In this document: positions 37,501 to 43,500 of the stretch, one piece after another
Layout: every line of letters starts with the position of its first letter
Numbering within the stretch: position 1 is the stretch's first letter
Source: Tubulanus polymorphus
Taxonomy: Eukaryota; Nemertea; Palaeonemertea; Tubulaniformes; Tubulanidae
Direction of reading: 5' to 3'
Assembly (NCBI RefSeq): GCF_964204645.1
Contig: NC_134028.1
Span: 1,364,001 to 1,428,000 of the forward strand
DNA length: 64,000 nucleotides
Position numbers and translations under genes: made by a program
The notes under the pieces: generated by a model
What the model was told of the DNA's origin: nothing
What the model saw: the letters and a program-made list of their open reading frames with translations, nothing else
Databases searched by the model: none

Positions 37501-40500
37501 TTTTCATCTAGATTCATTACGAAACTGATGCCAATATTTTTCCACTTAAACGAATCAACAATCAGTGATTAGATTACGCCTGACCCACCTCATCTGTGCC
37601 CACACAGTCTCCGATAAATCCGTACTGATTTCTCTTTATGTTTTTTTTTCCAGAGTAACTGGTGGAGAATTATTTGAAGATATAGTAGCTAGGGAATTTT
37701 ATAGTGAAGCAGATGCTAGGTAAAGTATAGATATGTGGTCGAATATATGTGTCAGAACATTGTGGAGGCATCAGGCGCTAGTAACATTACTGTGTCCAGT
37801 TGCTTTATGTTTGAAAATGAACTAATCATCAAACTATATAAAACTGATTCTTCTCAATCGGCTCCTGGTGCCTAATGTTTCATATCTATCTATGTTTGAA
37901 CGGTATTATTGAAAAGGATTATCGGAAGTGGGCTTTCAAATTTTCAAATTCTATCATATCATTTTTCAGTTTTACATCCTATTTTCAATCGGCTTTATCG
38001 CGAAAGGTTACCTCATCATTTTCAATTTGATATTTTTGATTTTGAATTCGGTAGATATATTATTCGAACTAATATTAAAGATTTAAAGAATAAAGCTTTT
38101 GATTTCGTACGGATTAATTATATTATACATGTATCTATATATTATCAATAAGTAGTTAGAATGTATTCATATTGTGTCAATGTCACGAGCTGTTTATGAA
38201 TATATCGGATATTTTTGAAGTGTTTTCAGTGAATCTGTCAGTCTCTCACTCTCAGGAATCTGTGCCTGTTACAGAATCAGAAAATTCTTGTTTAAATCAT
38301 GTTTTATTTCATCTCTGTTTATCTATAGAACTTTCCATCTTCACTGGCTGTTTGCAGGGGCAACGAAGGCATCTTCATTTTGATATCTGTTCGACCTTTC
38401 AGAATTCAAATCACCGAGATACTCCTCATCTAAATGACCCTCTTTTGGGTCACATTTCTTTTACCCTTACCCTCAAGCCCTTTTTTGGGTCACATTTCTT
38501 TTACCCTTACCCTCAAGCTACACTAAAATCTACCCGTCTCTCTCTGTCTGTCTGTTACACAACATTAATTAACTCATCTTTACCCACGTTCTGAGACGCA
38601 ATCGAGTTAAAATTGTAGTTGTTTTTACTGGAAAGACAGAAGACGTTGTTTCATGAAAATTTCATTTGAAGTGAATTTCTAATCATCAGTTTCATCTGTA
38701 ATTTAATTATTGGCTGTCACTTCATTTTATTATCGTTGAATTAATCATTTCTCTAATCACGTACATTTTATGAGGAAACTTTTGATGAACTGTGAAATAT
38801 TTCAATCTTGTCTCGACTTGAGATGAATGAACATCATTGATATTTCTGCCCCTAAGCTTATTGTCCCTTTGGGTCCTGAGCTTACTATCTATGGTCCTGA
38901 GCTTACTATCTCTGGTCTTGAGCTATCATTTCAATTCATTGTGCATCTCTTTGTTTTCTGGCTGGCTATTCCAAGTCAGGGTTATCTGTGAATTCGGGAA
39001 GGTGTCGTTCAGAGCTGGGTTCAGAGCTGGTTTCACGCGAGCAGTGACTTCTTCATTATTCATTTGACACACAACTATTCAAACTCTATCAATGATAACA
39101 TTTCAAACCAGGTGTTGTATTTTTCCCAAATGTGCAAACTCTTCTCTGACTGCAGTTGCTCAATAGTTGGTTAGAGCAGGGAGGTGGGAGTGAACCTCCC
39201 TGGTTAGTTGATATAGTGACAATTAAAACTTCATTGTTACTATGGGATTTATTCACCGGTTATCTTTATCCAACTTTTCAGCAACGGCTGCCCCAAAATA
39301 CACTGGTGTAAAAAAGTTAAAAGAAGCGATGTATCTGTGGCCATGTGAATTTAGCTGCTTTGAAATTAATCACGGCATAATGAAGAAAAAGGTTTATGAA
39401 TAGTTAGTAGCTGATATAGTTGGATATAGCTGATGTAGCCTGGAAATTGAAGGAATCTGAAGATTAACAAATTGATAAATCATAAAGAATCAGTGAATGA
39501 AGCCAGCTCCCTGGGTGCTGTACGTGCGTTGTAGTGCATGAGGTTTCTCTTTCTCTTCTCTCATCAGAACTCATCGTTTTTGTACAGCCTTAAATCAGGC
39601 ATTCCTGTAATAACAGGCACGATTATACTATAGATAATCTGTTTTTATATTCTTAGCATTTTTTTTTCTTTTCTTCTCCAATGTCTTCTGATTTTCAGTC
39701 ACTGCATACAACAAATATTAGAAGGTGTACAACATTGCCATCAAAATTGCATTATACATCGTGACCTAAAGGTGGGTTATACATAGGCCAGTGCTCGTGT
39801 TTCCGCTAAGTATTAGCCTTGCTTGTTCACCTTAGTCCTAGCAACGCGTCCGACTCGGCCATGAGAGAATTAGGAAAATCCAGCGTCCGCTGACCGGATA
39901 CTCAAATGGCTCTGCGGAATGGTGCAGGCAGGGGGAGTCCAGAGTTAGTGATTTAACAATTGTCTCTCATGGTTGAAGACGTGTTAGCCATGTTTATACC
40001 GATACATGTATAGCTGTATCTACACGACCCATGCAGGGATCAGAGGGGTCGTCTGGTCCACACGACCTATATACAGGGATCAGAGGGGTCGTCTGGTCCA
40101 CACGACCTATATACAGGGATCAGAGGGGACGTCTGGTCCACACGACCTATATACAGGGATCAGAGGGGTCGTCTGGTCTACACGACCTATATACAGGGAT
40201 AAGAGGGGTCGTCTGGTCCACACGACCTATACAGGGATCATAGGGGTCGTCTGGTCTACATGACCTGTACAGGTGTTAGATGGGGCGTCTGGGAAGTCAT
40301 CTCCCGCTACTGAAAAACAAGGGTTTATATGTCATCCTTTCTCTATACAGTGTAGATATGGCTTATATTGTATACATACATATATAGCAGCGACGGCCAG
40401 ACGTTGTTGGCGCGAGTCCTTGTTTTAGTGTGCTTTCTATTTAAGTTTCTCTCGATCTCCTTATTTTACCATTTCAGTCACTGCATGCAGCAAATCTTAG

Positions 40501-43500
40501 ACAGTATAAACTATTGTCACAGTCAACAAACACCGATCTCCATAGTACATAGAGACCTAAAGGTGAGCCCACTAAATCGAAACGTTTTTTTCTAAAATCA
40601 CCTTTAAAACTGTAGTATTTGACGATTTATGACGATCATCTTTATTATTAACATTTTCGCTTATTTCGTTTGCTACAATTTTCGCTTTCATTATTACTAA
40701 AAAAAAGAAAATCACGTTTTTATAAATCTATTTTTCGTAATGATAATTTTTCGGCATGTTTTCTTCATCTTCGATCTCTCTTATGTAAACACTTTCTTCT
40801 GAATTCAGAACCGTAAATTTCGATAAGTTTGAAATGGTGACATTTTTTTGAAATGGCAAAACCAACTTTGGTCTCGCGTAATACACTTGTTAATAGTAGT
40901 AATAGCAATGATTTTAAATGTGGGCTGCTATATTTTAGTCTCTAGTACTGAGAATCAGGATCCAGTTGCACAGTTTGCATTTAAGTTTGACTTCATTTCT
41001 TTTCCAATGTTTAGTCAAATCTGAACTCATAACTGTGAAACTACAGGTCCTGCTGTTATTTATGTTATATATTGATAGCATGTCAGCCCAGCAGATGAGG
41101 CAACCTTTGTCTCAGGTTATCTGAAAGTTGTTTGCATTCATATCTTTTCTTAAAGTTCTGAATTCATGATTTAAACTGTTTGAGACATGCTGTTTAGTTC
41201 TCCCGGGCTCATTTACATCTTTTCGACATTTGGGGCCAGTTGCTTCACAGTTGGTTAGAGTTAACAATCCAGTGGATAGTTGACATTGTTAGAATTAAAT
41301 GTTCATCGTTACTATGGTATTTTTCCACCGGTTATCTTAAACCAACTTTGGAACAACTGGCCCCAGATAAAAATTTTTTGAAATCCAAATTTCTCGTGTC
41401 TATTTTTGCACCGCATGTATTTGTTCCCCTGCACTGTGCTTGTATATATCTATACTGATGATTTCAAGAATGTTGATGCACGTTTAAAAATATGAATGTT
41501 TTCATTTGACATTTGAAGAATTACGCATCTTAACATTCCCGTAAAACGATTAAAAACTAAGCTCTATTTCTATGTAAAGCATAGTTATATAAATGTTTAT
41601 TATGTGTACAAGTGCTGATAAGAGATTAGCGTTATGGTATCTAAAATATTCAGTTTGTTTGGTCATCGACACCAGCAACTGCTGCAGTGACCGTGACAGA
41701 TGGTTTTATAGACGACTAAACTCACTGAAGTCTCCGTAGTTAGGACAATCATTACGTCTACAACTGACGACTAATGCTTAGTGAATTGGATAGATTGAAA
41801 AATAGAGATCACTTTTAGCTATGAAATGATGTATGTGACGAGGACTGTGACTGCACTTACAATCTAGTTACTAATAATAATGGATATTTCTATTACAGAT
41901 ATTCACTGTCAACTGGGACTGCTAGACTCAGTCAGTATCCATTGATAATCCCGATGACAATTGAATCTTACACGTAATAACTCTCATTTCATACATATAT
42001 TTATAAAGATGTATAGATGATGACATATACAAATGTAGTGTTTGATTCTATATCACCAGACCCTGGTTACTAATAGTCATGACTTGATTCCAAATATGTG
42101 GTTAGATCCAGTTGTACGGATTGAGATTATCAGAAATAGTTTTAGATCTCGTCTATTGTAGCAGTTACTTAAAGATTCAAGTTCAAGTTCAGTTGTTTAA
42201 AGTCAAATGATATTAAAAGATTTGAGTCTATTTTAGGATGAATACAGATAAAGACTCCCACGATCGACGGTGGATCGCGATGGATCGCGGTGGGTCGTGG
42301 TTCATCGCGATGATATTTAAATCATTCATCGATATGTAGAAATTGTTATTACTGCTGACATTTACAGGTTTAATTATATTCACATTACGACGATTCACAA
42401 TTGTAAATTCACTCACAATTCTACGTAAATCACTCAGTTGAATGAAATGAATATAGTTAGAGGGCTGTGGTAGTTATTATTGATGTTATAACGGACACAG
42501 ATGCCGTGATCGAATGACAAAATGAAAGTCATTGTTGATATCCATCGGCTAACGACCAACACTTACTAAGTACACAGATGTTGAAGTGTACTGAGTGCAC
42601 ACACAATGTCTGCTTCAGGATTGATCATTTAAAACACTCTAAAATCTGCAATGATTTCAATTAATCTGAATCTGTTTCAGGGGCCAATTCCACAGTCGAG
42701 ACTTAACATTCCAAAAAATGGTTTTTTATTTAAAGACTGGTCTTCATTGGTCTTGACAATAGAACTAGGACTGTCTGTGAAGCGATGACTATGGAACCAG
42801 TCAATGAGTTGTGGTTTCCTCGAGAGATTGATATTATATTCATATCGTCATTTTGTTGTCCATCTATCAGTACAGATGAGTAGAATCATGATATTTGACT
42901 GAATTGCTCTCGAGCAGTTCCAGCTCTTCACACCGTCGCCCGCGTTACTCAGCCATTTCATCTTCCACAAACACATCTGCTTATTAACTCAATCAGGCAT
43001 TCAGTTAGCTGCCGTCTCTTCGTGACTTTTTTATTATTGACTTATAGTCATCCGCCCCCATCGACTATAGATACATCGCCCGAATAACTGGATCACGTTC
43101 CAAATCCGTGAACTAGAACCAACAGATTAATGGATGTTATGAGTTGAAGCCACCCTGTAATCCACTGTTTATTTGTAGATCATTGAATCGATGAAATCCT
43201 TCCCAGATCAGTCACAACACTCGTCGCGTCTATCTATCTCGAGTTCTTAATATTCTCAGAAATTGTGAACAGTTAAAATAGAGAAAAAACCAATGTTTTT
43301 ATCATTATATTTATAGATCTATAGCAATCTAATTACGGTTAAACTCACTGCTGAAGTCAATGTAGTTGTGATGGCCATTTTGTTGATGACGTATACAAAT
43401 AACGACTTATGCCTTGTGAATTGGAAATAAAAATTAAGAACATAGAGATGACTTTCAAATAGAGACTATTTAAGTGATGTGACGAGTTGATAAAAAACAA

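What the first reader, a model, noticed from the sequence alone, without database searches (positions are those of the whole stretch)
39699..40562. Mutually exclusive exons in the catalytic loop of CaMKII
Exons 6a (73 nt) and 6b (85 nt) are tandem homologues, each with good splice sites, open frame, HRDLK and identical phases (2 in, 0 out). Both lengths are 1 mod 3, so including both or neither breaks the frame; only one-of-two works. Known CaMKII splicing diversity, as far as I know, lies in the linker and not in the kinase core. Exon 6b changes the end of helix alpha-E and inserts four residues (within QQTPISIV) right before the catalytic HRD, so the two enzymes could differ in activity, substrate choice or calmodulin dependence.
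Basis: partly seen in the sequence, partly recalled or inferred. Interest (0 to 1): 0.9.

Follow-up and report, generated by a model that had tools for sequence, protein, structure and literature searches.

The report
Swappable catalytic-core exon in CaMKII gene
A CaMKII gene carries two interchangeable versions of the exon that leads into the enzyme's catalytic loop, so the animal can probably make two different CaMKII catalytic cores, whereas the known CaMKII variety lies mostly in the flexible linker.

Summary
In the only CaMKII locus found in this genome, the exon for residues 113-137 (human alpha numbering, recalled probe) exists twice, 706 nt apart: 6a (73 nt) and 6b (85 nt). Both have AG/GT sites, the same phases, open frames and HRDLK. 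Taking both or neither gives an early stop. In a prediction-style scan 6b scores 0.58 relative to 6a; the best of 100 shuffled intron sets scores 0.12. Homology ends at the exon borders and changes are mostly conservative, so the duplication is old and 6b was kept as coding sequence. The four-residue insert is absent from the 23 CaMKII-type chains among the 60 rows listed, but comparable loops occur in NEK2 and TAK1, so 6b probably makes an active kinase. Best reading: frame-locked mutually exclusive exons giving two CaMKII cores. Functional differences are unshown; I favour altered coupling of helix alpha-E to the alphaC-beta4 loop. No transcript or relative could be examined. A second such pair lies in a MAK-like kinase of the same genome. 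Kinase-core exclusive exons are known (JNK); my searches found none in CaMKII.

The parts
37654..37719 (+). CaMKII exon 5 (66 nt), single copy; ends with two nt of a split Ser codon
39699..39771 (+). Exon 6a, 73 nt, [25 protein letters not shown] (end of helix alpha-E, beta-6, HRD)
40478..40562 (+). Exon 6b, 85 nt, [29 protein letters not shown]; tandem homologue of 6a with a 4-residue longer loop before HRD
39772..40477 (+). 706-nt intron between 6a and 6b
40031..40309 (+). Minisatellite with 38-40 nt period inside that intron; weak tendency to fold (z -2.0). Probably incidental
43832..43934 (+). CaMKII exon 7 (103 nt), single copy, PENLLLASK... with DFG
40482..40487 (+). TGCATG (recalled Rbfox-type motif) inside 6b; the only other TGCATG between exons 5 and 7 is at 39535, 164 nt before 6a. 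A lead only

Best explanation
6a and 6b are an old tandem duplication of one CaMKII exon, kept as a mutually exclusive pair. Each mature mRNA carries exactly one; double inclusion or skipping shifts the frame and is expected to be destroyed by nonsense-mediated decay. The gene therefore makes two CaMKII subunits that differ in the end of helix alpha-E and in the alpha-E/beta-6 loop just before the catalytic HRD. Both keep the catalytic residues and are probably active. Most likely effect (inference): 6b changes how helix alpha-E packs against the alphaC-beta4 loop, through H to Y at the position of PKA Tyr156 and the longer neighbouring loop, and so tunes the coupling between the kinase lobes or offers a new docking surface; subunits of both kinds may mix in one holoenzyme. 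Shown: the anatomy, the frame logic and the signs of selection. Inferred: transcription of 6b, exclusivity, activity and effect.
For: Single CaMKII locus: kinase-core matches (75 places) put CaMKII-grade matches only on C4; hub PF08332 has 3 matches, all at C4:1434923-1436788 downstream of the window. Splice sites, phase and frame fit for both exons, and both/neither gives stops. Scan in the style of PMC3228551: 0.583 against a maximum of 0.118 in 100 shuffles. Exon homology is beyond 500 of 500 shuffles while four flank comparisons are at chance. Of 20 nt differences 11 are at third positions (P 0.038); dN 0.22-0.26 against dS 0.67-1.29 by three methods; summed BLOSUM62 score reached by 0.5% of stop-free neutral simulations. 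Reciprocal retention: 6b keeps S, N and V found in the fly and human-delta chains where 6a changed, and 6a keeps I, E, V, H and N where 6b changed. Comparable loops of 10 and 8 residues against 9 in 6b occur in solved NEK2 and TAK1 chains, against 5 in 6a, fly and human CaMKII and PKA. PKA Tyr156 stacks with the alphaC-beta4 loop (PMC11196109, passages).
Against: No transcript data and no relative's genome were available. Only 25 codons can be compared: the test on the number of amino-acid differences alone is weak (P 0.089) and the codon-position test is marginal. No RNA-level mechanism for exclusivity was found. The Tyr156 argument rests on alignment by position, not on a model of this protein. 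6a also departs from the usual Gly before IVHRD (Cys), so 6a is not simply the unchanged form.
Confidence: 0.8

Rival explanations
1. 6b is a decaying duplicate or pseudo-exon that is rarely or never spliced in, and looks intact only because the duplication is recent.
For: 6b departs more from fly and human-delta CaMKII than 6a (17 and 18 against 20 and 20 of 25, with four insert residues left out) and has an insert not seen in 23 listed CaMKII-type chains. No expression data.
Against: Intron flanks show no leftover homology and silent divergence is high, so the copy is old; simulated neutral copies with 0.35 substitutions per site keep an open frame, AG/GT and HRDLK in 0.3% of runs, and in none of 4000 runs at 0.5 or above. 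Both splice sites look near consensus.
Confidence: 0.1
2. 6b is not an alternative protein exon but a regulatory one: its inclusion together with 6a gives a stop and lowers CaMKII output (poison-exon use).
For: Joint inclusion makes a premature stop.
Against: A poison exon need not keep CaMKII-like coding sequence, phase and HRDLK; 6b does. Splicing 5-6b-7 leaves the frame open.
Confidence: 0.05
3. Assembly artefact: two alleles or two gene copies wrongly joined.
For: The assembly does hold an apparent duplicated piece elsewhere (identical kinase matches on C10 and C36).
Against: 6a and 6b differ too much for alleles (55/75 nt), flanks are unrelated, and the neighbouring exons 5 and 7 are single.
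Confidence: 0.02

Closest known systems
JNK (MAPK8/9) exons 6a/6b
   Same: Mutually exclusive exons inside a protein kinase domain; the review ties them to tissue-specific expression (PMC8329584, passages) and another lists altered substrate binding (PMC8699841, table passage).
   Different: Different kinase and, from memory, a different part of the domain. JNK exclusivity involves interlocked U2 and U12 sites; the CaMKII donors here look like ordinary GT sites.
CaMKII linker splice variants (CAMK2A/B/D/G)
   Same: Same gene family; alternative splicing makes subunits that can co-assemble.
   Different: Variation reported there is mostly in the linker (PMC9772828, passages); [quoted passage not shown] Here the catalytic core changes.
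Tandem mutually exclusive exons in general (WebScipio-type clusters, human survey)
   Same: Similar length, same phase, homologous peptide, joint inclusion breaking the frame: 60% of human clusters have lengths not divisible by three (PMC5740500, section 7).
   Different: Nothing in principle; the gene and place are new to me. That survey lists CAMK2D among genes with four clusters; where these lie was not stated in what I read.
MAK-like kinase exon pair in the same genome (C2:26667430-26667562 and 26668036-26668168)
   Same: Two tandem kinase-core exons, each 1 mod 3, both/neither breaking the frame.
   Different: Equal lengths (133 nt) with no insert; covers HRD through the activation loop; silent sites saturated.

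Membership tests
CaMKII gene | CaMKII kinase core and regulatory segment in one open reading frame | tested here: met
   Exons 2-11 with 6a or 6b give an open frame ending [19 protein letters not shown]; best chains are CaMKII
CaMKII gene | Association (hub) domain downstream | tested here: met
   PF08332, 3 matches at C4:1434923-1436788; exon-wise 56-62% identity to the recalled human alpha hub
Mutually exclusive tandem exons | Similar length, same phase, AG/GT sites, homologous peptide (criteria in PMC3228551) | tested here: met
Mutually exclusive tandem exons | Joint inclusion or joint skipping disrupts the product | tested here: met
   Stops in both cases
Mutually exclusive tandem exons | Transcripts carry one or the other, not both | not testable with these tools
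   No RNA data
Mutually exclusive tandem exons | Known exclusion device: U2/U12 mismatch or too-short intron | tested here: not met
   GT donors GTAAAG, GTGGGT, GTGAGC and AG acceptors; 706-nt intron. Most human clusters lack these too, so this does not exclude membership
Mutually exclusive tandem exons | Competing RNA pairing (docking and selector sites) | tested here: inconclusive
   21 segment pairs, 20 shuffles each; most extreme z -2.4, expected among 21 tests; no relatives for covariation
Active protein kinase | HRD, DFG and neighbouring catalytic residues present with 6b | tested here: met
   HRDLKPEN and DFG intact; Pfam Pkinase 72.0 bits with 6b and 79.1 with 6a. Activity itself not testable here

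The most novel reading that the evidence does not exclude
CaMKII itself has a splice-switched catalytic core: 6a and 6b subunits differ in inter-lobe coupling or docking and can be mixed in one ring-shaped holoenzyme, giving graded enzymes from one gene. With the MAK-like pair, this lineage may use exchange of kinase-core exons as a repeated way of diversifying kinases without new genes.
Probability: 0.35. Interest if true: 0.85.

Novelty: new variant of a known kind. Interest (0 to 1): 0.6.

Why it matters
CaMKII is a central memory and heart kinase and its splice diversity is discussed almost wholly in terms of the linker; PMC9772828 argues from identical kinase domains that the core cannot explain isoform differences (passages). 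A natural pair of cores in one gene would let one ask directly how the alpha-E/beta-6 region sets CaMKII activity, cooperativity and substrate choice, with everything else equal. As an exon pair it is a further member of a known class.

Tried and rejected
Long-range RNA pairing: 21 segment pairs gave nothing beyond chance. The minisatellite between 6a and 6b folds only slightly better than shuffles (z -2.0, 11 of 200 as good) and was found at this place only (3 matches, 1 candidate); I treat it as incidental. Other exon pairs in the gene: of 8 internal exons scanned, two have a candidate above 0.15, exon 6a (0.583) and exon 4 (0.222, a 49-nt stretch among 518 candidates, judged chance). Literature: ten searches gave no report of exclusive exons in the CaMKII kinase core; the library holds open-licence papers only, and three papers I asked for were not held.

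Full report
Observation. Probing with a recalled human CaMKII alpha found its exons in order; exons 2-11, with AG before and GT after each, join into one open frame whether exon 6a or 6b is used. Hub exons lie beyond the window at C4:1434923-1436788. Of 75 places matching the kinase core with 6b, the CaMKII-grade ones are only at this locus, other kinases matching at up to 58% over short stretches; stretches withheld as N limit this.

The exon pair. Joint inclusion reads on from HRDLK into [24 protein letters not shown] and a stop; skipping both reads [20 protein letters not shown] and a stop. As several further exon junctions follow, decay of such mRNAs is expected (inference from general knowledge). 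A scan after the criteria of PMC3228551 (passages seen) gave 6b a relative score of 0.583; 100 shuffles of the flanking introns gave at most 0.118. That paper reports that only 0.56% of other neighbouring fly X-chromosome exons share such features. Applied to 8 internal exons, the scan gave only one other value above 0.15, for exon 4 (0.222), which I judge chance.

Age and selection. The exons are 55/75 nt and 15/25 aa identical; differences by codon position are 6, 3 and 11, third positions in mild excess (P 0.038). dN/dS estimates are 0.22/1.29, 0.26/0.67 and 0.23/0.89. Upstream and downstream flanks show no likeness beyond shuffles, the exons exceed 500 of 500. In neutral simulations from 6a, copies that keep an open frame, AG/GT and HRDLK fall from 2.6% at 0.2 substitutions per site to 0.3% at 0.35 and to none of 4000 at 0.5 and above. 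Given 20 random changes and no stop, 0.5% of simulations keep as high a BLOSUM62 sum, but 8.9% have as few amino-acid differences, so the single tests are modest and the case rests on their sum. Against fly and human-delta chains 6a matches 20 and 20 of 25, 6b 17 and 18 of 25 with four insert residues left out; each exon keeps residues that the other has lost. The duplication is thus older than the changes in 6a.

Protein. The insert sits between the alpha-E His and HRD: 9 residues in 6b against 5 in 6a, in the fly and human-delta chains and in PKA. In one search, 23 of the 60 rows shown (of 955) are CaMKII-type chains; against 18 of them 6b is longer by 4, against 4 worm rows by 5 (6a by 1), against the CAMK2 row 5ig1 by 4. 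NEK2 has 10 residues here and TAK1 8, both with solved structures, so the fold tolerates such loops. 6b has Tyr at the place of PKA Tyr156 (numbering checked through chain 1atp; placed by counting back from HRD), where CaMKII and 6a have His; PKA Tyr156 stacks with the alphaC-beta4 loop, whose disturbance uncouples the lobes without loss of catalytic efficiency (PMC11196109, passages). From this I infer that 6b alters inter-lobe coupling; it is untested.

Splicing mechanism. Donors and acceptors look like ordinary GT-AG sites with pyrimidine tracts for both exons; the 706-nt intron is not very short; 21 RNA segment pairs show nothing convincing. TGCATG occurs twice between exons 5 and 7, at 39535 and inside 6b at 40482; about 1.5 would be expected by chance, so this is only a lead. 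I conclude that frame and decay enforce one-of-two at the protein level and that trans-acting factors probably choose, which is the commoner human situation too (PMC5740500, section 7).

A second case. Among the 75 and 63 places I noticed one other close tandem pair: C2:26667430-26667562 and 26668036-26668168, both 133 nt, in a MAK-like kinase (label from a recalled MAK probe). They encode HRD through the TDY activation loop, differ at 38 of 134 positions (9, 3 and 26 by codon position; P 1e-5), flanks unrelated, and both or neither breaks the frame. I did not survey kinase exons exhaustively: one search scored 124 of 699 candidates.

Literature. Passages in PMC9772828 say CaMKII variation is mostly restricted to the linker and almost all mammalian splice variants come from it; PMC11019858 says the same of cardiac delta variants. 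PMC5740500 lists CAMK2D with four exclusive clusters without saying where in what I read, so a core cluster there is not excluded. JNK 6a/6b is the closest known kinase case. My ten searches found no CaMKII core pair, in an open-licence library only; annotations of unnamed relatives may already list such isoforms.

Verdict. A real, old, coding tandem exon pair with the anatomy of mutually exclusive exons, in a place unusual for CaMKII. Use and effect await RNA and biochemistry.

Noticed in passing
G000 C2:26667430-26667562 and 26668036-26668168 (L001, L005, L006): Second tandem pair of kinase-core exons (133 nt each, HRD to activation loop) in a MAK-like kinase; strong excess of silent changes; both or neither breaks the frame.
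   Followed up: yes
40031-40309: Minisatellite with 38-40 nt period in the intron between 6a and 6b, with short inverted repeats in each unit; found only here in the genome by the DNA search.
   Followed up: partly
39535 and 40482: The two TGCATG motifs between exons 5 and 7: one 164 nt before 6a, one inside 6b.
   Followed up: partly
37400-37465: CTG/TTG-rich microsatellite about 190 nt before exon 5.
   Followed up: no
G000 C10:8114542-8115012 and C36:93057-93527: Kinase matches with identical scores on a large and a small contig, perhaps an unpurged haplotype copy.
   Followed up: no
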